Shown in pieces: positions 8,273-64,000 of a stretch of DNA of 64,000 nt. Within the stretch, counting starts at the first letter, position 1. Each line of letters begins with the position of its first letter. Below the pieces are notes generated by a model. The model worked only from the letters and a program-made list of their open reading frames with translations, did not search any database and had not been told where the DNA came from. The translations under genes and the position numbers were made by a program. This DNA comes from Phragmites australis. Lineage: Eukaryota > Streptophyta > Magnoliopsida > Poales > Poaceae. Location of the stretch: positions 12,593,501 to 12,657,500 of the forward strand of contig NC_084942.1 in NCBI RefSeq assembly GCF_958298935.1. The letters are read 5' to 3'.

Positions 8273-9335
8273 CACTACAGAACAGGTTATCAATAGCGGT
8301 TCCAAACTAGATTATCATTATCGGCTCTAGAACCGGCAATGATATTAAGTATCATTACCGGTTCAAATTTTAAACCGACAATAAGAACCCAACTATTATT
8401 GTTTGTTCTAGGCTTGAACCGACAGTGATAACTCAAATATCTAACTTTAAACCGGCAGTTATAATCTATCCATATATACAAAAATACTCTGCTAGGACGT
8501 CTTCAGCATGAGGATCTGTCTTAAGATAAAGACCTTATGCAAAACATTCGTTGTAGAGTGTTTTATATCTAAATGTTTGGCAAAATGTTCACGGTAGGGT
8601 CCTTCAAATCTTAATTTGCAGTAGAAACTCAAAAAGCATTATGATTAATGTGCCCTAAGGTGCAAAATTGCTCAGAGCTCCTAGCTCTTGGTAGAGCGAT
8701 TTTGCACCATAAGGCACACTGATCCCCATACTAAAGTTTGATCCTAATTTGAAAACACAATCATCTTGAAATAATAGCGATAGTAGTAACTCTAAATGAA
8801 TGGTGAAAGTACAATCATCTTAAGAAGAATATGTTTTCTGCCACTCATTTAGATTATATTATTGGCACAATCTTGAATGATCAACTTACCACTCATTTAG
8901 ATAGGGAGACAGAGACAGGGAGATGGGGAGACAGGGCGATGGGCTCATGAGACGGGGAGATAGCTCAGGTGAAGGAGAGACGGGGTAGCCCAGCCATGTG
9001 GTCGGCAACATGCTCGGGGGATGAGGAAGATAGCTCGTATGAAGGGGAGACAAGGTGGTGCGACCACACCGAGCGCGCCCATGAGGTCGGTGATGGTCTC
9101 TTGAGAAGGGGAGATGAGGTGGTGCGGCCGCGCTGAGAGTGGTCATGAGGTCAGCGATGGGCTCAGGAGACACGAAAGATGGGCTTGAGGGGTAGAAACG
9201 ATGAAAGTGGTGATGATCACTGTCATTTCATATTGGCTCAGTTATTGATCTGTCGGAGAGCTTATGAACCAGTAGTGATAACTCTTATTACTACCAGTTT
9301 GTATTTCAAACTAACAGTGATACTTTACTACCGGT
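8273..9335. mobile_element. CACTA-like transposon remnant with subterminal CGGTT motifs
   Basis: A CACTACAGAACAGG tip at 8273 has the form of a CACTA terminal repeat. Behind it are clustered short motifs built on CGGTTC and GAACCG in both orientations (8300-8460), and the same motif type returns near 9240-9335. The middle (8890-9180) is a purine-rich, repeat-like tract with recurring GGGGAGA and GAGGTCGGCGATGG units. No transposase is present. The right terminal repeat was not found, so this is a fragment or non-autonomous element cut by the LTR that begins at 9336. Confidence 0.5.
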
Positions 9336-9818
9336 TGTGAAGAACCGTCTAAATACTATTCCAATTAATTATTAAGATGATCATTTACTTAATCACAACC
9401 ATGATGATTAATCATAATACCATCTCGGTAGGCCCGACATGTGTTTTGTGCCCAAGATCGGAACACTACCTTTCCCACACATAACATAACAACAAGACTT
9501 AAGAAAGACTGAGCAATTAACATTATATTACAAGTCTTTAGAAGATTATCATTTACAATAGTTTACGGAGATACTACGTAACCAAAATGTAACATCTATG
9601 AACAACAACTAGATGAAGTCATATGCCCTTAGACTCCACTCAAAAGCATGCCACACGGGTAGACATCACTACTCTAGCCCGACGCCAGCGTCGGTGGACA
9701 TGAAGTAGCTGGTAACCTGAAAGATCAGTATGAGTACGAAGGTACTCGCAATACTTAATCCATAATAGGTACATATAATAACCTGACTCCAAGGATTATG
9801 CAATTGAGCCATTAGCAA
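9336..9818 (-). mobile_element. Gypsy LTR fragment, 3' part, split by a younger insertion
   Basis: Read on the minus strand, this ends ACGGTTCTTCACA. It matches the plus-strand stretch ending at 56702, including CGAGTACCTTCGTACTCA and a GTTCGG/ATCTTGGGCACAAAACACATG-like block. The LTR continues at 17630-18008 after the Tat-like element that split it. The right part joins gypsy integrase sequence on the same strand, so it may be the 3' LTR of that broken gypsy element. Confidence 0.6.
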
Positions 9819-23100: not shown

Positions 23101-24286
23101 GAGTTTGGTGATGATGAATCAGGTGGTGGGCTTGTGGATACGTTCCAAGAAATTTGTTGGTTATTATCCTTGTTGGTTTGATAATGGTGGTGGGCTTGTG
23201 GATACGTTCCGAGCAGAGATGTTAGGTTTTGTTGGTTATTTCCCTGTTGGGTAGTTGGAAAGTCTTTGCCCAAGTGTCACATATAAGGACCGGTTTGTGG
23301 AGCAACAACCCAAGAAATACCGTACCAACCACGAGGCCGATATGGGTAAGGCTTAGCATATTGATTAGACACCTGGCTGGTATTCGTTGGAGTACCAGGA
23401 CCTAATCAATGGACAATGCTTCATAGTGATCTCATTGTGGCACACCACTGGCGTGTGTGCTAACACGGCAACATGGAAATCACGACTCGTGGGGAAAGCT
23501 GGACAACCTCTGCAGAGTGTAAAACTGTTATAACAGCCGTGCTCATGGATATGAGAGACTTTGATCCTCACATGATTAGTGGGTTGTGATTATGGGTTGT
23601 GGTTATGAGATGGTTGTGGTTAATGTTTTGGTACAGGGAGTACTAGATGGTTGTTGTTATGGTTCTGGTACAGGGAGTATTAGGTGCTTGTGGTTATGGT
23701 TCTAGTACATGGAGTACTAGATGGTTGTGGTTTTGGTTGTAGTACAGGGAGTACTAGATGATTATGGTATGCAAGGTGAGGAACCTTGTATACTGGGTGT
23801 TGGATTGTGTGGGTTACATTCACTTAATAATTGCTTAATGTTTTTGGGTCCAAATATGTTTTCATTACTCGCATTTACGCAAATGTACTATGTGTTATCC
23901 TATTCTTGATATAAGCCTGCATATCATTATCTTTTTCACACTTGCTGAGCGCGTCGTGTGCTCACACTTGCTATTTTTCCTATGCCATGCGACATGTATG
24001 CTGCTGCTCAGTGAGTGAAGATGTTGAAGACTATCAAGATGAGGTTGTAATGTTCTAGGCACGTGTCTCCCGGTCGGTTGCCTGCGGTGTTGTTGGGCAC
24101 CAGTGCTTCTGTTCCACTGCAGATATCTTCATAGAAGACAATATATGTCAATTGCTGTAAGAGTTTAACGTTTATTTAATAAAAGTATTGCTTCTGTTAC
24201 TTCACCTGTGTTGTCCTTATGTGTGTTGAACATCCTGGGCACACATAAGCCGCATCTAATTTTGGCTGTTAAAACTGGGTGTGACA
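20160..24286 (+). repeat. 4.1-kb LTR of the long-LTR family (copy A), probably solo
   Basis: It starts TGTAACAACTTGATTTTCAG and ends GGGTGTGACA. The same sequence occurs inverted at 39797-42904, 44919-48051 and 57060-61089. No primer-binding site follows its right end and no polypurine tract precedes its left end, so it is not obviously attached to an interior. It landed in minus-strand gypsy pol. Left flank CAAAG and right flank ACCCC do not match, but CAAAG recurs at 26319-26323 just beyond the next LTR, so the two LTRs together may be one compound insertion (weak inference). Confidence 0.8.
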
Positions 24287-39715: not shown

Positions 39716-39796
39716 TCAGTAGAAGAGTTTGTTACCCCTGCTCTCCGGAAAAAGTTTGTAACTCCAGGAAGTTTTCTACTGACTTTTTTTTGCGCC

Positions 39797-42700
39797 TTTG
39801 CCGTCCCCACACATCCACTCTTCCGTTTGGCATGCACAAAAACTGGAATCCACTAATTAATAGGCTAGGCCTGTCCCATACCAGGTCTCGTGGTTGGTAC
39901 GATATTTTTTGGGTTGTCGCTCCACGAACCGGTCCTTAGTTAGGTCACTTGAGCAAACAATAACCAACATCATAACCATGACAACCACCAAAACCACTTT
40001 GCTCAAGGCCTAAGGTTCCATGTTGCTAGACCATAAACATATTAACCATCAATGTTGTATATATTCATTAGTCAAGATTATGACACTTCTTAACATCCCA
40101 AAAGCATGGCTAAGCAGTCTACCCATAAAAGACACCTAACCATAAACCATCTAGGTTCCAAGGGATGATAAGGGAAATCTAGGGAAAACCCTAACATAGG
40201 TGACTACCCATCATATTGACACTGCATGCAATTTTGTAAAACAAAACATTTAAAAACATCGGTTCAATATGATCAAGGACACTTGCCTTTTCTCCAATGC
40301 TGCTCAGTGTTGTCGAAATCTTGGTCTTGGAGTCCCTCGAACTACTCCGGAATGTTATCAACTAATCGCAAGACCTACCGACAAAAAACACAAAGGAAAC
40401 ACTAAGAACAGCATACCAAACATCATTAAAACACTTTAAAACTACTATGGTTGGATAGGGATAATTTTAGAAACATTTATATGCAAGAATCACCTAAATC
40501 GGAGTTAAGATGAAAAGAGAACAGCTTTCGAGAGATGGATTACACTGAAAAGAAAGACTAGTTTACTGGAGTTATCTTCATATGGGAAAAGTGTTTATTG
40601 TACAATCACTGTGTCAGACTTGACAACATTATTGCACAAGATTCAAGAAGTGCAGGGCAGACTAGACTTCACTGACTAGGCTAAGGATAATGATGTGGTG
40701 CTGACTTGGCATGCTATGCAAGTACCATCTTGGATTAAAGAAGGGATACGCAGAGATCTAGTACCAACCACCTATGATGGATCAAAAAGGCCGAAGGTTA
40801 TACTTCTAGGTTAAAGATACTACTAGTGACTCTATATAGTGGTGGTGGTTCGGGTTTCGTCGGAGATGGTGATCGAGCTTATGGCCATAGCCATCGATGT
40901 CAGCTTCAGTGGTGTTTCAGCAAAATGAGGGAAGCATAGCGTAGAACGCGGAAAGACTAACTCAGCGGTATGGTTGGTTTTGGAAGGGGTCATCCGAGGT
41001 AGCGGCAAAACAGCGATGACTGCTTCTAGGTTTGGTGGTGACCGCGAACAAATGCAGGAACGAAGACGCTCGCGTTCCCAGATATTGGCTATGAATTTTG
41101 AGGAATCGTTTGAACAAGTATGTTCATATAACCCGGGAACACAATGCTATGGCATGGGTTTGGTAGATCATCCACTGAGAGGAAGAACATTCAGCATAGA
41201 TGAAACGGGTGATGACTGCGACATGCTGTGGTTGGCAATGGCGTCTTGGTCATGTCGCTGCACAAATGGGGATGGGCTCCTAGGGTAACGTAGAAGACTC
41301 CATGGGACACGCCGTGACACGTTTGCTGCATCCACACGCGTCCAGAAACCGGACAGCAGGTATGTCAACATTGATTGCGGTAGTTTGGCTGCTCTAATGG
41401 CCGAACCGGTTGGTGAGGGCGTGGGGAACATCATGCGACATGTGCTGCTAAAAGGGCATGGCAAACAGTGCACTAGTTGGCTGGGAACATCGATGCCAAT
41501 TAGCTACAGCACTGCTGTCTCGAGGCTGTCCGCGACGGCAACGACCGTGGCGGCGTAGATCGGGCTTTGGCCGGGGCTAGGGCCTGGCTAGTTACTTAGT
41601 ATGATGCTAAAACAGTAGTGAGAGAGGAGAATAAGGGGTCCTCATATTGCTTTGATGGTCGTGGAAGGAGAAATCGCGGAGAAGACGATGTAGCGCATCA
41701 CGGGCGGCGGCTCCGGCGAACGGCGGTGCTCCGGCGACATACGGACAGGGCAGCAGGGACTTCTAGGGTTTTGTGGTGTGAAATAGGGGTAGGAGAGGGC
41801 GTGCAACTCATATTTATAGGGCTAGGGCCGGCTAGTTGAGGTGGAGTCCAAACGGAACACGAATCGGATTCTAGTTCGAGGCGGTTACGATTTCCTTTTT
41901 CTCAGCTCTCTATTCCGATGATGATATCTCCATCGTCCAGACTCCAAATTGGATGTTTGTTGAATCTAAATTGTAGTACTCAAAAAGATCTACAACTTTG
42001 GTAGTCATTAGAACTTCTGGAAACGTCATCTTGATTTCCAAAAATGCACCACAAGATAAACTGTTTGAACTCAGACTTTTCTGCGCAGTACTGATTTCGG
42101 GGGCCATAACTCCCAGCTTCATTATCCAAAAGTGGACTTCCATAGGTTCAAATCGAAGATCTCGACGAGACCTACAACTTTGATGTTGTCAAGATTTGCA
42201 TTCAAGGCCGTTTTGAACTCCAAAACTTTATGAGAAGATGAGGCTGTCCAGGACTCTGCGAACATTTCCAGATTTTGTGGATCCTTTGTTGGGCCATCTA
42301 GAAAACTTGGCTAAGGGTTTGAACTTGAGCAAGATTGAGCCCAAAGACACTTTAGGTATATCTAAGGTTTAGAAAAAAACTTTTGCAGAGAAATTTGAAT
42401 GGGATTTGAATTTAAATTGAGCTTGAAGTGAATTTGAGAGAAACCAAAAGATAAGGTTGAACAAGAATATGAGTAGATGAGGAATTTGAATTTGGATTTG
42501 GGTAGAATTTGAGAAAGAGGAGAGATTAAATTTAAACAAGGATTTGGATAAGATTTGATTTGACCTGGAGAAGGATCAGGTATGATCAAGGATTAAATAG
42601 ATGATGAATTCAAGGATTTTGAATCCAACCATTAAGATCCTTAACTTATTCACTACTGAGTTTTGTAAAAACCTTTTCAAAATCTTTTTCACTCAAAACA

Positions 42701-42904
42701 CCAAAGAGAAAGAAAAAGATAAAAAAGAACTCTAATGCATTTACCTGGCTCCTAGCAAAACTCAGCATGCAATGCACACAAAATAATAACCTATATTGAT
42801 TGATTGATTAAGAAAATAGGTTTTAAGCCTATTCTACTGGTGAAGCTACTCAATAATCTTGGAAAATTTTAAAAAGTTGTAAATCTAAAAATCAGGGTGT
42901 TACA
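39797..42904 (-). repeat. 3' LTR, copy B of the long-LTR family, truncated
   Basis: It aligns to copy C through CTTTGCCGTCCCCACACATC (copy B near 39797, copy C near 45963). The about 1.04 kb of LTR terminal sequence that copy C has at 44919-45962 is absent here. It keeps a segment (40699-41715) that copy C has lost. It ends GGGTGTTACA on the plus strand. Confidence 0.85.
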
Positions 42905-42918
42905 AATCTACCCCCATT
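42905..42918 (-). other. Polypurine tract of the long-LTR element
   Basis: The minus strand reads AATGGGGGTAGATT immediately before TGTAACACCC. It marks second-strand priming and sets the 3' LTR. Confidence 0.75.
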
Positions 42919-43695
42919 AAAGGAATCTCGCTCTTGAGATTCAGGCAGATCAGATAAGAGATAAGAGAACTTGGTCTTCAAAAAAAAAATTCTCGCTTTC
43001 CAAATTGCTTTTTCTTCTCAGTGTTAACCTCATTGCCCTAACAAACTTTGCTCACTTTGCTTTTGATGACTTTTGCAACTGTCCTGACAAATCTTGATTG
43101 ATTACCTTGAGTATGTTGGATTTTCTCAGATATTCTATTCCTGGTATCTTCAACGGTTGTAGTTGTCTATGATGTATTATTCTAACTTTTTGATATGTGT
43201 CACATAGGACCATATACTTTGCTACACCACTTTTGTTTCCATACTATCGATAACAATCCTTGAGGTCATGATACATCTTAGTGCTTTCTAATTCCTGAGA
43301 ATTCCGTAGCTTTAGCAATCCTGATAAATTTCCTTTATTGTTTTTTTAATGATCTTCTCATCTTTTGATTGACCTTGGCAGACCTTTTTATCCTTGAAGA
43401 TTTAGTAAGTCATATCCTAATTCCGAGGAAAGAGTAGTTGTTCTTAGCAGTCACTTCTGTGGTCGGAGTGCATCTTCTGGGTACTGTCCTTCCTTTAGCA
43501 CATTTTATTACCTCATTACCTTTGCTAACTAACCGTTTCCAATATCTGTCTTTAGGTTCCAGAACCAAGAGAATGGCTAGGAAGACTACACCCCTTAAAA
43601 AGGAGCGGACTTCTCTAACTTACATTTCCAGTTCTTGAGAAGTAGATAGGCATGTAGCCTTTGACATGGAATATATCACTCTTTTTTTTGTGTGC

Positions 43696-44028
43696 CTACT
43701 GAGCTTCTGGGAGCTTGATGGGATCTCGTCGATCTTGGCTATCTTGAGTTACAACTTGAAAGTCGTGATGGTCTGAATGTTGAACTGAAATCTTAGTGTG
43801 GGATTTGGGGTTGATCCAGTTCCGTGCGGGGTACTTCATGGGATATCTTTTGATCCAACGCGTAGGTTCTCCACAGCGGACACACACCTTCTTATCGTTT
43901 GGTACAAGGATCCTTAGGGGACATCCATTGGCATAGTGTCTTTCTTCTTCACAGCAAAAACACCTTCCTTGTAGGGGTACTCTACAAATTTTCTCTCGAC
44001 CTATGAAACTTGCTAGTTGACAGAACAA
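43696..44028 (-). CDS. Gag-like zinc-knuckle fragment of the long-LTR element
   Basis: This 110-codon frame holds a complete CX2CX4HX4C knuckle (CFCCEEERHYANGC, residues about 23-36) and a second degraded one (CVRCGEPTRWIKRY) in which the His and last Cys are replaced. Basic residues surround them, as in the nucleocapsid part of gypsy Gag. The frame lies in the interior in the sense direction. The upstream part of gag seems decayed (stops just before the Met), so this is probably not translated as drawn. The family is clear from the knuckle only. Confidence 0.55.
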   Translation of the reverse strand: MFCQLASFIGREKICRVPLQGRCFCCEEERHYANGCPLRILVPNDKKVCVRCGEPTRWIKRYPMKYPARNWINPKSHTKISVQHSDHHDFQVVTQDSQDRRDPIKLPEAQ

Positions 44029-44901
44029 AGTGCTTGTTTAGGAGTCGAATGTAACCAAGAACTATTGTTTGCTTGATGGTCTTCAAAGGCTTTCTTCCTC
44101 TTCTTGTTGTTGCCTTGCTTTCCATGCTCGTCTTCTGTACCTAGAGCTTCAACGATCTTTAGCAGACTTTCCACATTCTGAGCCATGCCTTAAAGGATTT
44201 GAGTTTGTGTCTCCAAAAATTGTTCCTTGTGGCATCTACTGGATGTCGTTCTTATTGTTGTTGGTACCTTTACCAAGCTGATCTTTCTTTGTGTTCACCA
44301 TCTGATCGGGATTGATGCAGAAGGTTTGGCAAGAAAGAAGGGACTAGAAGGAGAAAACCCAGCTATACTATTAACTATAAAGATATATAAGGTCGTTGTT
44401 ACCAGATGCTAAAGCATCCCATAATGCACTCTAGCACTCAAACAGAAAATCCAAATCACTCAAGGCACACTACACAAGCACACACTACTAACCTCGCTCT
44501 AACGTTTACGAAGATTGGGGAAAATCCTCATATAACTCGAAGAACTAAAATTGGGAGCAGCGTGAAGGTAGATCTTCATGTCTTCAGTGTTGTGGTAGAT
44601 GATTCTTCCTTGTCGTGATGGATCTTCATCTTTATCATATAAATCTTCACTCAAGGTAGGAGTGTCAAGAGAGAACTTCAAGTGCACCCTCCTCGAAATG
44701 AGTTACTGGGATGGTTCAACAACTAAAATTTTGAAAGGAGGAGTGTTGGAAATTTATTTTTCTCAAAAGGGTGAAATAGGTAAGTAGAGCGAGAAACTGA
44801 GAGGTCAGAAAAGCACAGAGATGGGTTTTTCAAAATAGGCTTTTAAAATATAACCTTATGGCACGACCATTCTATCTAGGCTTGCGTCCTACGGTCAGTA
44901 T

Positions 44902-44914
44902 GGCTCTAATACCA
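44902..44914 (-). other. Primer-binding site of the long-LTR element
   Basis: The minus strand reads TGGTATTAGAGCC four bases after the LTR end TGTGACA, one base from the initiator-Met tRNA complement. It defines 44919-48051 as the 5' LTR. Confidence 0.8.
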
Positions 44915-44918
44915 CCTC

Positions 44919-47900
44919 TGTCACACCCAGTTTTAACAGCCAAAACCAGATACGGTTTATGTGTGCCTAGGATGTTCAACACACATAAGGACGTCACAGG
45001 TGAAGTAACAAAAGCAATACTTTTATTAAATAAACGTTAAACTCTTACATCAATTGACATATATTGTCTTCTATGAAGATATCTACAGCGGAACAGAAGC
45101 ACTGGTGCCCAATAATACCGCAGGCAACCGACCGGGAGACACATGCCTAGAACGTCACAACCTCGTCTTGATAGTCTTCAACATCTTCACTCACTGAGCA
45201 GCAGCATACATGTCGCATGGCATAGGGAAAATAGCAAGTGTGAGCACACGACGCGCTCAGCAAGTGTGGAAAAGATAATGATATGCAGGCTTATATCAAG
45301 AATAGGATAACACATGGTACATTTGCGTAAATGCGAGTAATAAAAACATATTTGGACCCAAAAACATTAAGCAATTATTAAGTGAATGTAACCCACACAA
45401 TCCAACACCCAATATACAAGGTTCCTCACCTTGCATACCATAATCATCTAGTACTCCCTGTACTACAACCAAAACCACAACCATCTAGTACTCCATGTAC
45501 TAGAACCATAACCACAAGCACCTAATACTCCCTGTACCAGAACCATAACAACAACCATCTAGTACTCCCTGTACCAAAACATTAACCACAACCATCTCAT
45601 AACCACAACCCATAATCACAACCCACTAATCATGGGAGGATCCAAGTCTCTCATATCCGTGAGCACGGCTGTTATAACAGTTTTACACTCTGCAGAGGTT
45701 GTCTAGCTTTCCCCACGAGTCGTGATTTCCATGTTGCCGTGTTAGCTAGACACTTAACACACGCCAGTGGTGTATCGCCCGGAAAGTCACTTCAAAGCCG
45801 TTACAAAGTTTCATCCAGTATATGCATGCCCGCTAGGTTTCACCGCCGTCAAAGTGGCATCACACCACCCAGAAGCCCCCTTTTGCACCTTGTAGCTCCA
45901 GAAAGTTTTCACCCTTCCCTTCCACTACACATCTCATACCACTAACCAAATGGTTCTGGGCTTTGCCGTCCCCACACATCCACTCTTCCGTTTGGCACGC
46001 ACAAAAACTAGAATCCACTAATTAATAGGCTAGGCTTGTCCCATACCAGGTCTCGTGGTTGGTACGATATTTCTTGGGTTGTCGCTCCACGAACCGGTCC
46101 TTAGTTAGGTCACTTGAGCAAACACTAACCAACAACATAACCATGACAACCACCAAAACCACTTTGCTCAAGGCCTAAGGTTCCATGTTGCTAGACCATT
46201 AACATATTAACCATCAATGTTGTATATATTCATTAGTCAAGATTATGACACTTCTTAACATCCCAAAAGCATGGCTAAGCAATCTACCCATAAAAGACAC
46301 CTAACCATAAACCATCTAGGTTCCAAGGGATGATAAGGGAAATCTAGGGAAAACCCTAACATAGGTGACTATCCATAATATTGACATTGCATGCAATTTT
46401 GTAAAACAAAACATTTAAAAACATAGGTTCAATATGATCAAGGACACTTGCCTTTTTCCCAATGCTGCTCAGTGTTGTCGAAATCTTGGTCTTGGAGTCC
46501 CTCGAACTACTCCGGAATGTTATCAACTAATCGCGAGAACTACCGACAAAAAACACAAAGGAAACACTAAGAACAACATACCAAACATCATTAAAAAACT
46601 TTAAAACTACTATGGTTGGATAGGGATAATTTTAGAAACATTTATATGCAAGAATCGCCTAAATCGGAGTAAAGATGAAAAGAGAACAGCTTTCGAGAGA
46701 TGGATTAGACTGAAAAGAAAGACTAGTTTACTGGAGTTTTCTTCATATGGGAAAAGTGTTTATTGTACAATCACTGTGTCAGACTTGACAACATTATTGC
46801 ACAAGATTCAAGAAGTGCAAGGCAGACTAGACTTCACTGACTAGGCTAAGGATAATGATGTGGCGAACGGTGGCGCTCCGGCGACATACTGACAGGGCAG
46901 CAGCGACTTCTAGAGTTTGGTGGTGTGAAATAGGGGTAGGAGAAGGCGTGCAACTCATATTTATAGGGCTAGGGCCGGCTGGTTGAGGTGGAGTCCAAAC
47001 GGAACACGAATCGGATTCGAGTTTGAGTCGGTTACGATTTCCTTTTTCGTAGCTCTCTATTCGGAGGATCATATCTCCATCGTCCGGACTCCAAATTGGA
47101 CGTTTGTTGATTCTAAATTGTAGTACTCAAAAAGATCTACAACTTTGGTAGCCATTGGAACTTCTGAAAATGTCATCTTGATTTCCAAAAGTGCACCACA
47201 AGATAAACTGTTTGAACTCAGACTTTTCTGCGCAGTACTGATTTCGGGGGCCATAACTCCCAGCTTCATTATCCAAAAGTGGACTTCCATAGGTTTAAAT
47301 CGAAGATCTCGACGAGACCTACAACTTTGGTATTGTCAAGATTTGCATTAGAGGCCGTTTTGAACTCCAAAACTTCATGAGAAATGAGGCTGTCCAAGAC
47401 TCAGCGAAAATTTCTAGATTTCATGGATCCTTTGTTGGGCTATCTAGAAGATTTGGCTAAGGGTTTGAACTTGAGCAAGATTGAGCCCAAAGACACTTTA
47501 GGTATATCTAGGGTTTAGAAAAGAAACTTTTGCAGAGAAATTTGAATGAGATTTGAATTTGAATTGAGCTTGAAGTAAATTTGAGAGAAACCAAAAGATA
47601 AGGTTGAACAAGAATATGAGTAGATGAGAAATTTGAATTTGGATTTGGGTAGAATTTAAGAAAGAGGAGAGATTGAATTTAAACAAGGATTTGGATAAGA
47701 TTTGATTTGACCTGGAGAAGGATCAGGTATGATCAAGGATTGAATAGATGATGAATTCAAGGGTTTTGAATTCAAACCATTAAGATCCTTAACTTATTCA
47801 CTACTGAGTTTTGTAAAACCTTTTCAAAATCTTTTTCACTCAAAACACGAAAGAGAAAGAAAAAGAAGAAAAAGAACTCTAATGCATTTACCTGGCTCCT

Positions 47901-48051
47901 AGCAAAACTCAGCATGCAATGCACACAAGATAATAACCTATATTGATTGATTGATTAAGAAAATAGGTTTTAAGCCTATTCTACTGGTGAAGCTACTCAA
48001 TAATCTTGAAAATTTTTAAAAAGTTGTAAATCTAAAAATCAGGGTGTTACA
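44919..48051 (-). repeat. 5' LTR, copy C of the long-LTR family, with internal deletion
   Basis: Plus-strand ends are TGTCACACCC and GGGTGTTACA. It is about 3.1 kb against about 4.0-4.1 kb for copies A and D. A deletion junction at about 46860 (TGATGTGG joined to CGAACGG) removes roughly 1 kb present in copy B at 40699-41715. Short matching bases at the two breakpoints suggest a microhomology-type deletion. Confidence 0.85.
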
Positions 48052-49013
48052 GGGGTCCTAAGGACTGGTTCTTGAACATGTAACCAAGTTATTTCCGCAC
48101 AACCATGAGGCCTATATGTGTATGGCCTGGACAACTAATTAGTCACCCCTCTGACTCTGTGAGCACCATTGGATGGTTAAGTGGCACAAGAGGGGGCTTC
48201 TGCAGTGATGGAATCGTTTATTAGTGGTGAAGCCTCAGTGGGTGCCTGCAGGTTAATGTTAGCTTTGTAAAGGCCTTGTAGTGAGACCCCGACTCCACAC
48301 CCCGGTAGTGTGAAGCAACATAGGAATGACGACTCGTGGGGAAAGTTGTGCAAACTCTGTAAAGTATCAAACTGGTCGATCAGCCATGCTCATGGACAAC
48401 AGCAAACTTGGACTTCTTCAGGATTAGATGGGATTAAGGATGGTATGGTTGGTCAGGTAGCCGGGTAATGGAATTACCTAGCGAGTCTTGGTAGTCGGAT
48501 AGAATCCGATGAGTCAATCCTTTTGTCATAGTTGTGTCTTCACCTAGTAAATAGGATGCCTGATGTTGAGGTCATAGGTCATAGTTGCTTAGTGCAGTTT
48601 ACTTATGCCTATCCTTTCCTTGACTTGAGCCCCATAGCATTTTTCCCTACACTTGCGGAGTACATTTTTGTACTCACACCCATTGCCCCCTTCTTTTTCC
48701 CCTTTTACTGATAAGAAGCCATCAATGAAGTTGCTACCTTTGAAGAGGACGACTTCGATCCGGAGTTGCTTTTCTAGGCTGGAGTGCCACCGGTTGATGC
48801 CTGTGGAAGAATGGAAGTCCCGCTGGCGCTGAAGATCTCTTTAGTTTTCTGATGTGTATCCTTTTAGACCCTTGGGTCCTTTTATAATAAGTTTAGTAAT
48901 GTTATTGTAATAATGACACTGTAATGATACACTAAAGATGTAAGCGCATGTATGAAACTTTGTAAGCGCATGTATGAAATTTGATCCTGGCATACATGTG
49001 TTGTGCTCGGTAT
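48052..49013 (+). mobile_element. LTR-like remnant between two elements
   Basis: No gene is seen. The text has grass gypsy LTR character (a block around GGAGTACATTTTTGTACTCA near 48657-48680, then a GAAGATCTCTTTAG part and long T/A tracts). It stops abruptly at about 49013 where gypsy pol begins in mid-RT. A short direct repeat GTAAGCGCATGTATGAAA lies at 48941 and 48963. Confidence 0.45.
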
Positions 49014-51218
49014 GATGAGATGAAAATTGAAGCCATAAAGAGTTGGCCGGTGCCCCAAACCATCAAACAGGTGAGAAGTTTTCTTGGACTTGCAGGTTTT
49101 TATCGTCGTTTCGTGAAGGATTTCAGCGCCATTGCTGCCCCCTTACACGAGTTGACAAAGAAAGGTGTGGTGTTCCATTGGGGTAAGGCACAAGAGGAGT
49201 CCTTTGACACTTTGAAGGACAAGCTTACGCACGCGCCATTGCTGCAACTTCCAAATTTTGGTAAGACCTTTGAGTTAGAATGTGATGCTAGTGGAGTTGG
49301 CATTGGAGGCGTTTTGATGCAAGAAGGTAAGCCCGTTGCATACTTTAGCGAAAAATTGCATGACCCTGTTCTTAATTACTCTACGTATGATAAGGAATTG
49401 TATGCACTTGTACGTTCTTTAGAGACGTGGCGTCATTATTTGTGGCCTAAAGAATTTGTTATACATTCAGATCATGAATCGCTTAAGTATCTTCGTTCTC
49501 AAAATAATATGAATCGTAGACATGCTAAGTGGGTTGAATTTATTGAATCTTTTCCTTATGTTATCAAACACAAGAAAGGGAAGGATAATATAATTGCTGA
49601 TGCTTTGTCTAGACGATATGCTTTGTTGTCCCAACTTGATTATAGAATTTTTGGACTTGACTCAATAAAAGAACAATATGTGCTTGATCCTGATTTTAAA
49701 GATGTATTGCTGAACTGTAAAGAGGGACGTACATGGAACAAGTTTGTGATCAATGATGGATTTGTGTTTAGAGCTAACCGTCTATGCATTCCAATTAGTT
49801 CCGTTCGTCTTTTGTTGTTGCAGGAAGCACATAGAGGAGGATTGATGGGACATTTTGGTGCTAAGAAGACGGAGGATATGTTGGCCACACATTTCTTTTG
49901 GCCAAAGATGAGGAGAGATGTTGAGCGGTTCGTGGCACGCTGTACCACATGTCAAAAGGCTAAGTCTCGCTTGAATCCACATGGTTTGTATATGCCTCTT
50001 CCTGTTCCTTCTATTCCTTGGGCAGATATTTCGATGGACTTTGTTTTGGGATTGCCTAGGACTAAGAGGGGGAGGGATAGCATTTTTGTTGTTGTGGATC
50101 GTTTTTCTAAGATGGCACATTTTATACCTTGTCATAAAAGTGATGATGCCGTTTATATTGCTGACCTCTTTTTCAAAGAGATTGTTCGCTTGCATGGTAT
50201 GCCTTCTACTATTGTTTCAGATCGCGACGCTAAATTTTTGAGTCACTTTTGGCGCACTCTATGGAATAAGTTGGGTACAAAACTACTGTTTTCTACTACT
50301 TGCCACCCACAAACTGATGGCCAAACGGAGGTAGTGAACCGCACTTTGGGTACCATGTTGAGAGCTATTTTGAAGAAAAATTTGAAGATGTGGGAAGAAT
50401 GTTTGCCCCACGTGGAGTTTGCTTATAATCGGGCAACACATTCTACCACCAAGGTAAGTACTTTTCAGGTAGTGTATGGTTTTACCCCTCGCGCTCCTAT
50501 TGATCTTTTGCCTTTACCTACCACTGAAAGAACACATAGTGATGCTAGTGCACGTGCTGATTTTATTCATAAGTTGCATGAAACAACTAAAATAAATATC
50601 GAAAAGATGAATGAAAAGTATAGAATTGCTGGTAGTGAAGGTAGGAAAGAAGTCAAACTTGAACCGGGTGATTTAGTGTGGTTACATTTAAGAAAAGATA
50701 GGTTTCCAGAGCTGCGTAAGTCTAAATTAATGCCAAGAGCTGCTGGTCCTTATAATATAATTGAGAAAATAAATGATAATGCATATAAACTTGAGTTGCC
50801 ACCAGAGTTCGGGGTTAGTCCTTCTTTTAACATTGCAGATTTGAAACCTTACTTGGGAGCCGATGATGAGCTTGAGTCGAGGACGACTCCAATTAAAGAG
50901 GGGGAGGATGATGAGGACATCACTCCCTCGGATACATACAATGATCCTCCATTGAACTTTCAAGGTCCAATCACAAGGGCTCGCGCACGACAATTAAATT
51001 TAGAGGTGAGCTCGTTCCTAAGCAACTCTTTATATAATTTTGAGAATAGATTACTACCTAATGATTATGTGTTGCTTAGAAATTATGGAGAGGACAAGGA
51101 GACACATAGAGGAAGGCTTGGAGGCGTGGAGGAGCAGCTAGGACGTCCAACAACAGCAGGAGGTCCAGTCCAACTCGAGTCCGAATCAGCCTCGACCTCC
51201 AGGACCAGCGAGCAGTAA
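48981..51218 (+). CDS. Ty3/gypsy pol fragment: RNase H and integrase, open frame of 745 codons
   Basis: The homology begins at about residue 12 ([12 protein letters not shown], the end of the RT thumb), so gag, protease and most of RT are missing and the Met at 48981 is fortuitous. RNase H carries D102, E139, D164 and D207. The integrase zinc region has H284, H291, C321 and C324. The core has D353, D414 and E450, the D,D35E spacing. After it come the GPY/F-like part (about residues 575-640) and the C-terminal [11 protein letters not shown] tail, without a chromodomain. No stop or frameshift is present over 2.2 kb, unlike the other pol copies here. This suggests a young insertion or ancestry that was recently functional. 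It is not autonomous as it stands. Confidence 0.85.
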
Positions 51219-55080: not shown

Positions 55081-56702
55081 GTTTTAGCAGAGTTTTCTGT
55101 TGGCTGTAACTCTAAAAATTATGAAACCAATTCATTGGTTTCTTAATAAACTACTCTATCTATTAAAAATATCCAGAGCCATTAAATGTTGAATTAAATT
55201 TCTAAGATTAATTAATTATGTTAAATCTTCATTAATTCACGGATAATTCTTCACAAGTCCAAAGTGGGTGAATCCAATTTTGCTAGTTTTCTTATGACTT
55301 CTTCTAGCTAGGAAAAATATTTTCATGCATTGTAAAGCATTTTTTATGGCATTTCATCTTGTGCATGTTGTGGCATGCATGTTTGCAGTTCATTCGTACT
55401 CATTGCATTGCACGCGTTGATCCTTTTTAGAGAACGCCGATCCGTCGATTCCGGAGGCCAAAGGTGATCCCGTCGCACCGTACCATCCAGGGGCAGGTCA
55501 GGAGAGGAAACCCGAACACCATAGACCACTTGCATCGTTTAAGGCCGATCATTGGGGTTGTTGGCTTTAGCACTTACCTTACTCACCACATGCCGATCTA
55601 ATGGTAAGGCGAGCTGAATACCTTCATAGCTGTGGCTTTGTGGGTGTGAACATCAATGGTGTGAACAGGCGGGCGGGCTTGTAAGTGGTATTAGTTTGCT
55701 CTGGGTGAATTTCTAGTATCGCCGCGCCGAGTGATGCATGCCCCACACGGTTGGGGCTGGTTGGGAAATGTTGTCACGACTACCCCCTTGTGTGCACTTT
55801 GGCCGGTGGCACAAGTCGAATGGTCCTCGTGTGGTGCGGGTTCAAGATTATCCCCCTACAGGGTGTATAAATAGTTCAAACTGCCGCGCTCTCGGTCATA
55901 AGCATGCTATTGTTTCATCTGCACCCGGTCGTAGAGTTCTCATTGTGGTTTGTGGATGATGGCATGAGGTTGATGGTTGGGCATGTGATTATGTTCTGGG
56001 TATGGTGGTTGGTTGTTCAAGTTGGCACTTGTTCACATTGATATACTTGTTGTTACATTTACATAGGCTCAGTTGTTGGTTATGGCAGGGTAGTTTCATA
56101 TAAGTTGGCTAAGTTAGTTGCTCACACCTATGTCTAGGATTCTTACCGCTTAATTAACTTAACCATGTTTAAGTCTTATTACCAGCTTAAATGCATGATC
56201 CTTGGAGTCAGGAATATGTATACCCATATTGTGTAAGACTTGCGAGTACCTTCGTACTCAGGGTGCTGCCCTTAAGTTGATGCAGGTTCGCAGGTTAGCG
56301 AGGAAGAGGCGGTGTTCGGCTACTTTGTAACTGCCGAACAGGGTGGCGGGCAGGAATAGCACACTCTACTCCAAACTTAGTGTTTTGGTATGGAGCCTAA
56401 AGGCATGTGGCTCCATATCCTTTTGTTGCATAGTGTTCTTTCGCTGTGTAGTTGTTGTTTCCTTTTTGTTGTAAATTGTGGAAACAACTACGTGTTTAAA
56501 GACTTGTAATATAATGTTAATTACTAGCTCTTTCTTAAGCTTTGTTCTGATGTATATGTTGGAAAGGCATGTGTTCCGATCTTGGGCACAAAACACATGC
56601 CAGGACTACCGGGACGGCATTCTGATTAATCGTCGAGGTTGTGATTATGAAAAATGATCCGCCTGATGATTAATTTGAATACCGTTTGGACGGTTCCTCA
56701 CA
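55081..56702 (+). repeat. Gypsy LTR (second copy of the family at 9336-18008)
   Basis: Its right end ACGGTTCCTCACA and the upstream CTTGCGAGTACCTTCGTACTCA, AGCGAGGAAGAGGCGGTGTTCGGC and GATCTTGGGCACAAAACACATG parts match the minus-strand copy. A TATA-like TATAAATAG lies near 55863. The left limit is uncertain. No interior is attached on the right, so it may be solo. It abuts the unknown host-type sequence at 56703. Confidence 0.55.
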
Positions 56703-56971
56703 ATCAAGGTAGTGGCGGTGGCTATTGCCGTCGCCGTGGCAGACTTGGATGGATCCCAACAACTCCTCCATTGGCTCACACACCAAGTGTACACTACCCT
56801 CCAGACATTCCCCCACCGACGTTCCCCCACCGGCCACGATCAAGACTGATCATAGTAACCTATTTTCTTTGTCTCCCTCATTGTTAGGCTCATAGTAACA
56901 CTAATTAGGACACAATAATTTAATTGAGTTTACAGTATGTTAGGCTCAATTCATATCATCCTATCATGTAG
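56703..56971 (+). other. Possible upstream exon and intron of the disrupted gene
   Basis: The plus strand has a Gly/Arg- then Pro-rich frame (RRRGRLGWIPTTPPLAHTPS, about 56715-56850) followed by AT-rich intron-like sequence that ends TCATGTAG at 56971. If real, it is an exon of the gene continuing at 56972, itself cut on the left by the LTR ending at 56702. The evidence is composition and position only. Confidence 0.3.
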
Positions 56972-59900
56972 GTGCTGAAACCGATCGTATGGCTCAAAGA
57001 GGTAATCCCTGCTATAGGTGGTATTGTACCTTTGGTGCAATCCACTCTAGATGGAAGGATGTCACACCCGATTTTAACGGCCAAAATCAAATGCGGCTTA
57101 TGTGTGCCCAGGGTGTTCAACACACATAAGGACGTCAAAGGTGAAGTAACAAAAGCAATACTTTTATAGAATAAATGTTAAACTCTTACAACAATTGACA
57201 TATATTGTCTTCTATGAAGATATCTGTAGCAGAACAGAAGCACTGGTGCTCAACAAGATCGTAGGCAACCGACCGGGAGGCACGCACCTAGAACGTCACA
57301 ACCTCTTCTTGATAGTCTTCAACATCTTCACTCATTGAGCAGCAGCACACATGTATAGGGAAAATAGAAAGTCTGAGCACATGATGTGCTCAGCAAGTGT
57401 GGGAAAGAATGATATGCAGACTTATATCAAGAATAAGCTAACACATGGTATATTTGCGTAAATGCGAGTAATGAAAACATATTTGGACTCAAAAAAGCAT
57501 TAAACAATTATTAAGTGAATGTAACTTATACAATCCAACACCCAGCATACCAGGCTCCCCACCTTGCACACCATAACCGTCTAGTACTCCCTGTACTACA
57601 ACCAAAACCACAACCATCTAGTACTCACTATACCAGAACCGTAACCACAACCATCTTGTACTCCCTGTACCAGAACCATAACCACAACTAAATCCATAAC
57701 CACAATCCCATAATCACAACCCACTAATCATGTGAGGATCCAAGTCTCTCATAACCGTGAGCATGGCTATTATAACAGTTTTTACACTCTGCAGAGGTTG
57801 TCCAGCTTTCCCCACGAGTCAGTGAATTCCATGTTGCCATGTTTGCAAGACACTTAACACACGCCAGTGGTGTGTCACCAGGAGATCACTACGAAGCATT
57901 GTCCATTGATTAGGTCATGGTACTCCAACGAATACCAGCCAGGTGTCTAACCAATATGCTAAGCCTTACCCATATCAGCCTCGTGGTTGGTACGGTAATT
58001 CTTGGGTTGTCGCTCCACAAACTGGTCCTTATATGTGACACTTGGGCAAAGACTATCCAACTATCCAACAGGGAAATAACCAACAAAACCTAACATCTCT
58101 GCTCAGAATGTATCCACAAGCCCACCACAAGAACCAACATCCCCTAACCCATTCTTTGCCCAAGTCCTAGGGTTTCATGTTGCTAAAACAAGTTCATCAT
58201 CACCATTGCATATGTCCACTAAACATGTATATGATACTTCCCAACATCCCAAAAGTATGTCTAAGCAATTCTACCCAAGAAACTCATATCAACTACCACT
58301 TAGGCTTGAAGGAATGTAAAAAAAGAATTAGGTAAACCCTAACATAGGTGACTACCCATCATATTAACAGACACTGCATGCAATTTTGTAAAACAAAACA
58401 TTTAAAATATAGGTTCAAGATGATCAAGGACACTTGCCTTTTACCCAATGCTGCTCAATGTTGTTAAAATCTTGGTCTTGAAGTCCCTTGATCTGCTCCG
58501 GAATGTTATCGACTAATCACGAGAACTATCGACAAACAACACAAAGCAAACACTAAGAACAACATACCAAATATTATCAAAACACTTTTAAAAATACTAT
58601 GGTTGGATAGGTAAGATTTTAGAAACATTTAGATGCAAGAATCGCCTAAATCGGAGTTAAGATGAAAACAGAACAGCTTTCAAGAGATGGATTAGACTGA
58701 AAAGGAAATACTAATTTTCCAGAACTATCTTCCTATGGGAAAGGTTTTATTGCACAATCACTGTATCAGACTTGACAATATTATCGCGCAAGATTCAAGA
58801 AGTGTAGGGTAGACCAGACTTCGCTGACTAGACTAAGAAGAATGATGTGGTGCTGACTTGGTATGCTATGCAAGTACCATCTTGGATTAAAGAAGGGATA
58901 CGCTGAGATCTAGTATCGACCACATATGATAAATCAAAAAGGTCAAAGGTTGTGCTTCTAGGTTAAGGATACTACTGGTGACTCTATGTAGTGGTGGTGG
59001 TTCGGGTTTCATCGGAGATGGCGATCGTGCGTGTGGCCATAGATATCGATGTTGGGCTTTAGTGGTGTTTCAGTGAAACGAGGGAAGCATAGCGTAGAAC
59101 GTGGAAAGACTAACTCAGCGGTATGGTTGCTTTTGGAAGGGGTCATCTAAGGTAGCAGCAAAACAGCAATGACTGCTTCTAGGTTTGGTGGTGACCGCGA
59201 ACAGATGCAGGAACAAAGATGCTCGTGTTCTCATAGATTGGCTATGAAATTTGAGAAACTGTTTAAATAGATATGTTCATATATCCGGGGAACACTATGC
59301 TATGGCATTGTTTTGGGTAGATCATCCACTGAGAGGAAGAATGATCGACAGAGATGAAATGGGTGATGGTTGTGATGTGTTGTGGTTGGCAATGGTGTCT
59401 TGGTCGTGTCACTGCACAAACGGGGATGAGCTCCTAGGGTAACGTAGAAGACTCAATGGGACACGCCGTGACGTGGTTGGTGCATCCATACGGCTGTCGA
59501 ATTGATGGGGAACGCGAATGTAAATCCGGTGCACGCGCAGAACACGTCTAGAAACCGGATAGCGGGTATGTCAACCTTGATTAGGTGGTTTGGCTACTCT
59601 ACTGGTTGACATGGTTGGTGAGGGCGTGGGGAACATCATGGGACATGCACCGGTGAAAGGGCTTGGTGATTTGAACTCTGGTTGGTCGGGAACATCGATG
59701 CCAATCGGCTATAGCGCAGCTGTCCGCGATGGCGATGACTGTGGCGGTGTAGATCAGGCTTTAGCCGAGGCTAGAGCTTTGCTAGGGACTTAGTATGATG
59801 CTAAAACAGTAGTAAGGGAGGATAAGAAGAGGTCCTCACTTTGCTTTGATGGTCGAGGAAGGAGGATTCACAGAGAAGATGACGAGGTAGCGCATCACAG

Positions 59901-61778
59901 GTGGCGGCGACGGCAGCTTCGGCGAACGACGAGGCACGGACAGGACATCAACGACTTCTAGGGTTTGGTGGCATAGAATAGGGGTAGGAGAGGGCGTGCA
60001 ACTCATATTTATAGGGCTACGGCGGGTGGTTGAGGTGGAGTCCAAGTCGAACACAAATCGGATTCGAGTTCGAGTCGGTTACTGTTTCCTTTTTCGCAGC
60101 TCTCTATTCCAAGGATGATATCTCCATTGTCCGGACTCTAAATTGGACGTTTCCTGACTATAAATTATAGTACACGAAAAGATATACAACTTTATTAATC
60201 ATTGGAACTTCTGAAAACGTCATCTTAATTTGCAAAAATACACCACAAGATAAACTATTTGAACTCGGACTTATCTGCACAATACTGATTTCGGGGGCCA
60301 TAACTCCTAGCTATATTATCCAAAAGGGGACTTCCATAGGTTCAAATCAAAGCTCTCGACGAGACCTGCAATTTTGGTATTGTCAAGATTTGAATTTGAG
60401 GCCATTTTGAACTCCGAAAATTCATGAGAATATGAGGTTGTCCAGGACTCCACGAAAATTTGCAGATTTCGTAGATCCTTTATGTTGGGCCTTCTAGATG
60501 ACTTGGCTAAGGGTTTTTACTTGAGAAAGATGGAGCCCAAATACACTTTAGGTATATCTAGAGTTTAGAAAAGAAATTTTTGCAGAGAAATTTGAATAAG
60601 ATTTGAATTTGAATTGAGTTTAGAGTGAATTTAAAAGAAACAAAAAATGAGGTTAAACTAGGAGTAGATAAGATATTTGAATTTGGATTTGGGTAGAATT
60701 TGAGAAAGAGGAGAGATTGACTTTAAATAAGAATTTGGATAATATTTGAATTGACCTATAGAAGGATCAGGTATGATTAATGATTGAATAGATGATGAAT
60801 TAAAAGACTTTGAATTCCAACCATTAAGATCCTTAACTTATTCACTACTGAGTTTTGTAAAAACCTTTTTCAAAATCTTTTTCACTCAAAACACCAAAGA
60901 GAAAGAAAAAGAACTCTAATGCATTTACTTGGCTCCTAGCAAAACTCAGCATACAATACACACAAAATAATAACATATATTGATTGATTGATTCAGAAAA
61001 TAGGTTTTAAACCTATTCTACTGGTGAAACTATTCAATAATCTTGGAAAATTTTATAATTTTTAGAAACCTGAAAATCAGGGTGTTACAAAGGAATTTTG
61101 TGAAGCTATCTATCTCTTTTGACATACGTTCAAGGGGAGAAAGTAGTAGGGATATACTATTAGGGCCTATGGCAATGTATCACTGATTTCGTTGCATTCT
61201 AAAAAAAACTGTCGTTAAAGGGTGCCTGAAAGTGCTTGAGGAGCATAGGTTCTTTTTGCCTGACTACAACTATTTTCGAATAAAAGCGCTTGAGGAGGGT
61301 GAAGAGGATTTGGCTTTGATCAGTGAGAGGCTTGCTCAGTTCAATGAACATGATATGGTATAGTAATATGTAATCCGATTGTTTTGATATACATGATTGT
61401 TAGCGTATATTATTTTCATAATTTTATTTTCTTTGCTTGTAGGATATTTTTGGTAACTCCTTTGCGGCAATTAGCTTTCATGCTATCTTAGATCAAGCTA
61501 TGCAGCATCTTGGGTTAAGCTTTTATGGAACCGGAGTGGACTTCACTGTTGAAGGTAACTACCAGGCTGATATAAGGTTTCATTTAAGTGGAAATGAATC
61601 AGCTAATAAGACATTGTTTACTGTCTATGGTAAAGCATGGGGTCGTCCATGTGAAGCGAAACAGAGTGCACTAATTCATACGCTAATGTATGTCGATGAA
61701 GTACTAGGATACAATATTCTAGATTTCAACTATGTTAAATATCACAGGTTACATGCTCCGGCAAATGCTCAAGTGTAA
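56972..61778 (+). pseudogene. Host-type gene of unknown function, disrupted in an exon by a solo LTR
   Basis: Segments: 56972-57059 and 61090-61357 form one exon split by the solo LTR, and 61443-61778 is the last exon, ending TAA. Removing the LTR and one AAGGA copy joins codons GGA-AGG-AAT in a single frame (LDGR then NFVKLSISFDIRS). That frame runs through VKGCLKVLEEHRFFLPDYNY to a GT donor at 61358, an AG acceptor at 61442, and on to VYGKAWGRPCEAKQSALIHT. One in-frame TGA occurs near 61188, where a single C-to-T change from CGA would explain it. I do not recognise the family; the text resembles unnamed grass proteins. The 5' part is not identified. The joined coding part visible is about 230 codons. 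Confidence 0.65.
57060..61089 (-). repeat. Solo LTR, copy D of the long-LTR family, with AAGGA target duplication
   Basis: The ends are TGTCACACCC and GGGTGTTACA on the plus strand. The 5-bp duplication AAGGA is present at 57055-57059 and 61090-61094. It is full length (about 4.03 kb) with no interior, so it formed by recombination between the two LTRs of an inserted element. It includes the about 1-kb segment lost from copy C and the terminal segment missing from copy B. Confidence 0.93.
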
Positions 61779-61978: not shown

Positions 61979-62192
61979 CATTAGTGACGGGTCTTAGTTT
62001 TCACCCGTCACTAATGTATCATTAGTGATGGGTGTTCTTATCACCCGTCATTAATGTTAAATCATTAGTGACGGATGTCTGTAGCCATGGAGGTTCACTG
62101 CCGAGGTCACTCATTACTGATGGATTGTGATGAGACCAGTCACTAATGGCGCACTCATTAGTGACGTGTGATAAGGACACCCGTCACTAATG
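61979..62192. repeat. Cluster of CATTAGTGACGGGTG motifs in both orientations
   Basis: At least seven variants of ATTAGTGACGGGTG or its complement CACCCGTCACTAAT occur within 215 bp, several forming hairpins with short loops. Such arrays are typical of the subterminal regions of CACTA transposons and of MITEs derived from them. A CACTA tip is not seen. Confidence 0.65.
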
Positions 62193-62515
62193 AGTGATGT
62201 TTACTATTATTTTCTTTACTGAGCTGCATGACCAGACAGTGTCTATCCACCATGGTTGCTCAGTAAAGGAGCGATTTTTTTGGCGATTCTATTGAGTCCA
62301 AATCAAATCTCGGTGATTTGAAGCTTATATATGCATGGTGGATTATAGGGTTTGAGTCAGAATCAATAATTTTTCTCCTTCTCCTAGATCTTAATATATG
62401 TGGATTGTCCCCCTTAGTGTATATGCATGCATAACCTACGTCTCCCGTTCGGGAGTGTTTGATTATAAATATGACTTGGTAACTCGTCATATTTATAAGA
62501 AGATGCTCTGGACTT
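62193..62515. other. Non-coding stretch with a small perfect hairpin
   Basis: No gene is seen. A perfect 11-bp stem (ATAAATATGAC / GTCATATTTAT) with a 10-base loop lies at about 62465-62496. Confidence 0.5.
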
Positions 62516-62757
62516 GTCCACGTAATTTGGATAGTTCGAGGATATATTACCTAAATAGTAGGTTTTTGTACTCTTGTATTTCTCTAGAGAGAATTTTGGT
62601 GGCGTCTCCCTGTTGTTCTCCGAATACACACTCTCTCGGTTCGTTATTGAGACATGTATTTGGAGAACAGCGGGGATGTGCTGCCGAAATTTTCTCTAAA
62701 ACCGTATAAGAGCATGGAAACCTACTCGGACCATATATCATCGAATGGGATTAGGAC
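62516..62757. repeat. MITE-like hairpin of about 240 bp
   Basis: Two arms of about 110 bp pair around a loop near 62627-62648: TTCTCCGAATACA pairs with TGTATTTGGAGAA, AGAGAATTTTGG with CCGAAATTTTCTCT, and TTCGAGGATATATTACC with the complement of CATATATCATCGAA. The pairing is why similar peptides (RCSPNT / CCSPNT) appear in both strand directions. No coding function is likely. Confidence 0.8.
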
Positions 62758-63272
62758 CTATTTTTGCCTATTAAAAATTAGCTAGAATCTTTCGCCATAG
62801 AAATTTTATAAAAAATGTAACTATAGAAAGATGGGGCTTCTGTCTCCTGTGGCTGTTGGATTCAAATCCATTGGCCCAGGTTCTTTCTTCTACGTCCAGC
62901 TAGTTGCTCCTCTTGTCTCTCTCCTGTAACACAGCTGTGTCCACGAGCGGCCCTGCTCAGCCCTCCTCCCCGTTTTGTGGTACTTTGGCCAAAAGTGGTT
63001 TTAGGAAAATAGGCCATTTGGCTTCTTCTGTCAAAGATGCAATGGTGTTGACAATCAACAGAAAAATTATTGATACATGGAATGCTAATTTGATATTCGA
63101 ATGCCTCCACGCTGATTTTTTTAGAGCCCATTCATCTAGTATTTAGAAACAAATGAGGGTGATCAATTCTCTGTGTAATCTGAGCCATAATGTGTGATAT
63201 CTGTAAATACTTTGAGCATAGATATTATGGTACGAAAGTTATGAATAAGTTGTTACAGCTATGTTTGAAAAT
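62758..63272. other. Intergenic or intron sequence upstream of the phosphatase exons
   Basis: A plus-strand frame at 62904-63146 (80 codons) and its minus-strand shadow show no domain I recognise. I cannot say whether this is the 5' part of the phosphatase gene or its first intron; the N-terminal phosphatase motifs are not visible here. Confidence 0.35.
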
Positions 63273-63635: not shown

Positions 63636-64000
63636 GATCGATACAATTCCATACCTGTGGATGCCATCATGGGGGCTCTTAGGGTCTTGCTTGGTACTGA
63701 ATTAGGATCCATCTTTCCAATTTAACTTTGCTGTAACCGAATACTGTTCAATGATCATCATGGAATTATTTTGATCTATTAGTAATATTGTTCCTTTTTT
63801 ATGGTCCTCAGATGTAAGGAATCACCCAGTTTTAATCCATTGCAAAAGAGGAAAGGTACCGATGAATGTAGGTTCTGTTCTAAATAAAATCATTCTTGTT
63901 CACACCACGTGGTCTTGATTTCTCTGTTCTGACTTCAGCACCGCACTGGATGTCTCGTGGGCTGCTTCAGAAAGCTGCAGAAGGGGTGCCTTTCATCAGT
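63636..64000 (+). CDS. Plant/fungal atypical dual-specificity phosphatase (PFA-DSP), partial, runs off the window
   Basis: Exons 63636-63693, 63812-63855 and 63939-64000 (cut by the window edge) join in frame with GT-AG introns. They read IPVDAIMGALRVLL, then DVRNHPVLIHCKRGK, then HRTGCLVGCFRKLQKG. HCKRGKHR is the HCX5R active-site loop: the Cys is the nucleophile and the Arg binds phosphate. The wording around it is that of the PFA-DSP (SIW14-like) family, known in plants as inositol pyrophosphate phosphatases. An intron splits the loop between Lys and His. The N-terminal half (the NFAVV...YRSG part of the family) is not found upstream within the window: it may lie further 5' beyond the repeats, or the start of this copy may be damaged. 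No defect is seen in the visible part. Confidence 0.85.

What the first reader, a model, noticed from the sequence alone, without database searches (positions are those of the whole stretch)
56972..61778. Solo LTR inserted in a coding exon; removal restores one reading frame
The 4.03-kb LTR is flanked by AAGGA on both sides. Taking out the LTR and one duplication copy joins the left exon part and the right part in one frame, which continues 34 codons to a TGA and then through two further segments to a natural stop. This dates the loss of the gene to after the insertion and gives an unambiguous empty-site prediction. It also reveals a gene of unknown function that an automatic annotation would miss or call as fragments.
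Basis: partly seen in the sequence, partly recalled or inferred. Interest (0 to 1): 0.8.

Follow-up and report, generated by a model that had tools for sequence, protein, structure and literature searches.

The report
Solo LTR nested in a CACTA transposon
The long insert is a solo retrotransposon end sitting inside a decayed copy of a high-copy DNA transposon, so the interrupted 'gene' is a transposon's own gene and the arrangement is ordinary plant nested-transposon anatomy.

Summary
A 4,030-bp LTR (57060-61089) lies between two AAGGA copies, and the flanks join in one frame. All 20 long paralogous copies fetched from the same genome have the uninterrupted site with one AAGGA. Relatives of the LTR flank an internal region with a tRNA-Met-type primer site and a purine tract, so it is an LTR, reading on the minus strand.

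The interpretation does not hold. The 'gene of unknown function' belongs to a CACTA (En/Spm) DNA transposon family; one exon alone has 150 scored matches in the genome, the window included. A CACTA-like end precedes it in 18 of 20 long copies, and transposase-type sequence follows in 12 of 20. The TGA after the junction comes from a one-base deletion seen in the window copy only. Its order relative to the LTR insertion cannot be told, so the dating fails. Copies decay almost neutrally (dN/dS 0.67-0.86).

Verdict: an ordinary nested transposon. What the unclassified CACTA-encoded protein does stays open.

The parts
56497..56702 (.). End of another repeat, probably an LTR ending ...TTCCTCACA, which cuts off the left part of the CACTA copy
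   Evidence: Related stretch at 9335-9540 (minus strand, 83%) ends at the same ...CACA with different sequence beyond; CACTA homology starts at 56702-56706. That it is an LTR is inferred from its ending
56703..57059 (+). CACTA copy, left remnant: probable part of exon 1, intron 1 and the start of exon 2 (from 56972)
   Evidence: 87-92% identical to 20 of 20 long copies; 40 scored matches, window included, of 286 candidates
57055..57059 (+). AAGGA, left copy of the target-site duplication
   Evidence: single copy in 20 of 20 long paralogues
57060..61089 (-). Solo LTR, 4,030 bp, transcriptional sense on the minus strand
   Evidence: 86-89% identical to the LTRs at 20160-24286, 39796-42904, 44919-48051 and L065:416-4453; primer site and purine tract of family members
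61090..61094 (+). AAGGA, right copy of the target-site duplication
61095..61357 (+). CACTA gene, rest of exon 2; TGA at 61184-61186 in a stretch put out of phase by a private one-base deletion
61358..61442 (+). Intron 2 (GT...AG)
   Evidence: Acceptor AG in 20 of 21 aligned rows (AA in one); donor GT in 20 of 21 rows, the other row with GTACATT in that place
61443..61778 (+). CACTA gene, exon 3 with its TAA stop (111 codons)
   Evidence: 150 scored matches, window included, of 561 candidates in the genome; no Pfam match at E up to 1
61979..62192 (.). Cluster of nine CATTAGTGACGG-type repeats, like those behind the CACTA end of other copies
   Evidence: up to two mismatches; matches to L023 and L027 left ends
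62193..62801 (+). CACTA copy, further internal sequence; homology ends here and the transposase part is missing
39796..48051 (-). Related element with two incomplete LTRs (39796-42904, 44919-48051) around 2.0 kb of internal sequence; used as proof of the LTR nature
   Evidence: LTRs 95% identical over 2,089 aligned bases; primer site TGGTATTAGAGCC

Best explanation
A copy of a high-copy CACTA (En/Spm) DNA transposon landed here. An LTR retrotransposon with long (about 4 kb) LTRs then inserted in exon 2 of its first gene, in antisense direction, duplicating AAGGA. Unequal recombination between its two LTRs removed the inside and one LTR, leaving a solo LTR. The CACTA copy also lost both its ends (cut at 56703 by another repeat, homology broken at 62801) and gained a frame-shifting deletion; the order of these events is unknown. 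The interrupted gene is the transposon's own accessory gene, which lies upstream of a TNP2-type transposase. Shown: nesting, LTR identity, target duplication, empty sites, a CACTA-like end and transposase domains in family members, near-neutral decay of copies. Inferred: solo formation by LTR-LTR recombination. Guess: that the accessory protein acts in transposition, for example by binding the subterminal repeats.
For: Empty site with one AAGGA in 20 of 20 long paralogues. 40 scored matches for each flank, window included, and 150 for exon 3. CACTA-like end within 4 edits in 18 of 20 long copies, exact CACTA in 16, with unlike sequence before it in the 17 copies printed. Transposase-associated domain PF13963 (5.5e-18) and DUF4218 PF13960 (7.9e-15, 1.4e-13) downstream on the same strand in the two copies scanned, C6 (L023 with L041) and L037; sequence homologous to that region in 12 of 20 long copies, L023 included. 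LTR family with primer site TGGTATCAGAGCC (L065) or TGGTATTAGAGCC (window) and a purine-rich tract.
Against: The right end of a CACTA copy and its 3-bp target duplication were not reached. The core transposase model (Transposase_21) gave no match in the pieces scanned. The window copy has neither CACTA end nor transposase. 8 of 20 long copies lack the transposase-homologous stretch in the DNA held. The surroundings of the exon-3 matches outside the 20 long copies were not examined. Genome-wide counts for the LTR did not complete. No orthologous chromosome without the insertion was available.
Confidence: 0.95

Rival explanations
1. A host gene (single-copy or small family) of unknown function was interrupted by the LTR.
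For: Three-segment structure with splice sites kept in 20 of 21 aligned rows, and an open exon 3.
Against: 150 scored matches of exon 3 spread over the contigs; CACTA-like ends and neighbouring transposase sequence in the long copies; dN/dS 0.67-0.86 among copies.
Confidence: 0.02
2. The CACTA family picked up a host gene fragment long ago and multiplied it; the unit is a captured gene rather than an original CACTA gene.
For: The gene lies upstream of the transposase and has no convincing Pfam match. No relative was found in the large protein set, which is uninformative if plants are few there.
Against: No evidence directly against it. I saw no host parent gene, but I examined the surroundings of the 20 long copies only; the remaining exon-3 matches, and other species, were not examined for one.
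Confidence: 0.2
3. The 4-kb insert is not an LTR but a DNA transposon with 10-bp inverted ends (TGTCACACCC / TGTAACACCC).
For: The ends are near-inverted repeats.
Against: The same unit occurs twice in the same orientation around an internal region with primer site and purine tract, and next to the same internal sequence in L065.
Confidence: 0.02

Closest known systems
CACTA (En/Spm) DNA transposons of plants, e.g. Rim2/Hipa of rice, Tgmt* of soybean
   Same: CACTA end, subterminal repeats, transposase-associated domain, high copy number; a second gene of unknown function is described as a standard part (PMC8978399; also PMC2613891 and PMC1079816; passages read)
   Different: Its first gene has no convincing Pfam match. 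Identity with Rim2/Hipa or any other named grass family was not tested by sequence
Solo LTRs of grass LTR retrotransposons with long LTRs (class named from general knowledge)
   Same: Single LTR, 5-bp target duplication, tRNA-Met-type primer site in family members
   Different: No difference noticed; clade (Gypsy or Copia) not determined here
Nested transposons of grass genomes (general knowledge)
   Same: LTR inserted into a DNA transposon that is also cut by another repeat
   Different: No difference noticed

Membership tests
Solo LTR | TG...CA ends and a 5-bp target-site duplication | tested here: met
Solo LTR | The same unit flanks an internal region with primer site and purine tract in other copies | tested here: met
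   window 39796-48051 (both LTRs incomplete) and, for one LTR and its internal neighbour, L065
Solo LTR | No internal region and no second LTR between the duplications | tested here: met
   the 4,030 bp aligns from end to end with the LTR copy at 20160-24286 (4,005 aligned bases) and with L065:416-4453 (3,899)
CACTA (En/Spm) | Left end begins CACTA | tested here: met
   exact in 16 of 20 long copies, CACTA-like within 4 edits in 18 of 20, not found in L025 and L034; the window copy itself lacks the end
CACTA (En/Spm) | Subterminal repeats in direct and inverted order | tested here: met
   13 and 14 motif hits behind the left end of L027 and L023, the two copies looked at
CACTA (En/Spm) | TNP2-type transposase | tested here: met
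   PF13963 in L023, PF13960 in L037 and L041; homologous sequence in 12 of 20 long copies. The core Transposase_21 model gave no match in the pieces scanned, so this rests on the two accompanying domains
CACTA (En/Spm) | Matching right end and 3-bp target duplication | tested here: inconclusive
   right end not found in the DNA held
Single-copy host gene | Low copy number and purifying selection | tested here: not met
   150 scored matches of exon 3; dN/dS 0.67-0.86

The most novel reading that the evidence does not exclude
The first gene of this CACTA family encodes an as yet unclassified protein that replaces the known subterminal-repeat-binding proteins (TnpA/TNP1), and its placement between two clusters of subterminal-type repeats is part of how the element controls its own transposition.
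Probability: 0.2. Interest if true: 0.4.

Novelty: new member of a known kind. Interest (0 to 1): 0.12.

Why it matters
It is mainly a caution. A frame that closes perfectly when an insert is taken out looks like a lost gene, but the flanks were a multi-copy transposon. The copies gave the empty site at once, without another species. The one thing worth keeping is the CACTA-encoded protein, which has no convincing Pfam match and which gene-finding programs may call a host gene.

Tried and rejected
Host-gene reading: rejected on copy number and transposon context.

Inverted-repeat DNA transposon for the 4-kb insert: rejected by the two-LTR element.

Relatives of the protein: none at E <= 0.001 among 136 candidates in the protein set; no control was run to see how many plant proteins that set holds. 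Pfam: no match at E up to 1 for the window's exon 3 or for the two exon-2 pieces beside the insert; one sub-threshold match (D-lyxose isomerase, E 0.18) for the rest of exon 2; among 14 exon-3 family members two families matched one member each (best E 0.0096 and 0.26). Those 14 are the window and 13 of the 20 short loci; I left out six with stops and one that I had cut short. PDB profile search: three matches, E 1.3-1.4. A structure prediction of exon 3 alone was too poor to use (mean pLDDT 43). Its helix-strands-helix order reminded me of a double-stranded-RNA-binding fold (recalled), but neither the Pfam scan nor the confidence supports it, so I ran no fold search.

Right CACTA end: looked for in L021-L041 and in L062, not found.

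Selection: dN/dS is 0.67 for exon 3 and 0.82 for the first part of exon 2 among the window and the 20 long copies, with a simplified count for codons that differ at more than one place. Over 190 pairs of a wider set (19 short loci plus the window) the median for exon 3 is 0.86, range 0.27-2.07; 0.93 for the 155 pairs with dS up to 0.2, and 0.35 for the single pair above 0.3. These numbers mostly reflect decay after insertion and do not show whether the gene was selected in active elements.

Other chromosome: the one other match to the neighbouring host gene (C23, 86%) has no CACTA copy in the 8 kb fetched and an LTR of the same family some 3 kb upstream of it, so it gives no orthologous empty site.

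Papers: listings; passages only were read of PMC1079816, PMC8978399 and PMC2613891. The grass mutation rate, the look of a tRNA-Met primer site and the link of PF13963 and PF13960 to TNP2 transposases are recalled.

Full report
What was checked. The insert is 57060-61089, 4,030 bp, with AAGGA on both sides. Without it and one AAGGA, the frame from 56972 continues to a TGA at 61184-61186, and two further open segments lead to a TAA ending at 61778.

The empty site. The flanks are repetitive. The left flank gave 40 scored matches of 286 candidates, at 88-91% apart from the window itself. The right flank gave 40 of 297, at 90-93% apart from the window itself. I fetched 20 copies that match both flanks, 9 kb each. 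In 20 of 20 the left homology ends after AAGGA, the right begins with AAGGA, and the two overlap by those five bases in the copy, so each copy has one AAGGA and no insert. The copies were chosen for matching both flanks, so the count says nothing about how often the site is occupied elsewhere.

What the gene is. Compared with one another, the copies share a left border, and the sequences before it look unrelated in the 17 copies printed. At that border 18 of 20 carry a CACTA-like end, exact CACTA in 16; none was found in L025 and L034. A cluster of CATTAGTGACGG-type repeats follows in the two copies looked at. Behind the gene, on the same strand, lie the transposase-associated domain (PF13963, 5.5e-18, in L023) and DUF4218 (PF13960, 7.9e-15 in L037 and 1.4e-13 in L041, the continuation of the L023 copy). 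Both go with TNP2-type transposases (recalled). Sequence homologous to that region is present in 12 of 20 long copies, L023 included. The model for the transposase core itself gave no match in the pieces scanned, so that part rests on these two domains. Together these place the family in the CACTA superfamily. A second gene of unknown function is a normal part of CACTA elements according to a passage of PMC8978399; PMC2613891 says that the known DNA-binding CACTA proteins share little similarity.

Copy number and decay. Exon 3 alone has 150 scored matches of 561 candidates, the window included; the others lie at 68-88% protein identity. I did not examine whether each of these lies in a CACTA element. 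Among the window and 20 long copies dN/dS of exon 3 is 0.67 and of the first part of exon 2 is 0.82. Over 190 pairs of a wider set the median for exon 3 is 0.86. Only 1 of 20 long copies has exons 2 and 3 both open. This is what dead transposon copies look like. The window copy lacks one base present in the 20 others aligned, which puts the following codons out of phase and produces the TGA.

What the insert is. Three more copies of the unit lie in the window. Two of them (39796-42904 and 44919-48051, both incomplete, 95% identical over 2,089 aligned bases) surround 2.0 kb of internal sequence. Beside the LTR, on the minus strand, stands TGGTATTAGAGCC, and in L065 TGGTATCAGAGCC, the usual tRNA-Met primer site of plants (recalled); a purine-rich tract lies at the other end. 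So the unit is an LTR, and the solo copy reads on the minus strand, antisense to the CACTA gene. It is 86-89% identical to the other four copies compared, so no close source was seen. The window CACTA copy differs from the nearest of the 20 by 7.6%. At a commonly used grass rate of 1.3e-8 per site and year (recalled), that separation is about 3 million years, a rough upper limit for the insertion, since the LTR must be younger than the copy that it sits in.

State of the CACTA copy. Its left part is cut at 56703, where another repeat ends in ...CACA. Its right homology stops at 62801, so it has no transposase region. From about 63636 on lies a host gene of the tyrosine phosphatase family (PF03162, 1.5e-17). 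The one other match to it in the genome, on C23, has no CACTA copy in the 8 kb fetched.

Judgement. LTRs nested in older DNA transposons are ordinary in plant genomes (general knowledge). The unclassified CACTA protein is the only part with some open interest.

Noticed in passing
63636-64000: Exons of a plant atypical dual-specificity (tyrosine) phosphatase gene, PF03162 at 1.5e-17, with one further DNA match in the genome, on C23.
   Followed up: partly
20160-24286 and 48052-48056: The minus-strand LTR at 20160-24286 has no matching target duplication (GGGGT / CTTTG), while the two-LTR element at 39796-48051 is also followed by GGGGT, and the minus copy is 97% like one part and 88% like another part of that element: a possible recombination or inversion between the two.
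   Followed up: no
48978-51218: Long open frame of a retrotransposon of Gypsy type (type named from recall) with RNase H and integrase domains.
   Followed up: no
62439-62801; L022, L027, L028, L032: A roughly 360-bp stretch of the CACTA family lies 1-2.4 kb further right in four of 20 long copies, which also share a downstream sequence of their own, so the family has at least two subfamilies.
   Followed up: partly
L023, L027 and window 61979-62192: Subterminal-type repeat clusters occur on both sides of the accessory gene, not only at the element's end.
   Followed up: no
L041:1054-1455: Reverse transcriptase fragment (PF00078, 1.7e-13) and, further on, an LTR of the same family as the solo LTR, downstream of the CACTA transposase of the C6 copy.
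   Followed up: no
1411-1878: Start of a glycosyl hydrolase family 1 gene (PF00232, 3.9e-11).
   Followed up: no
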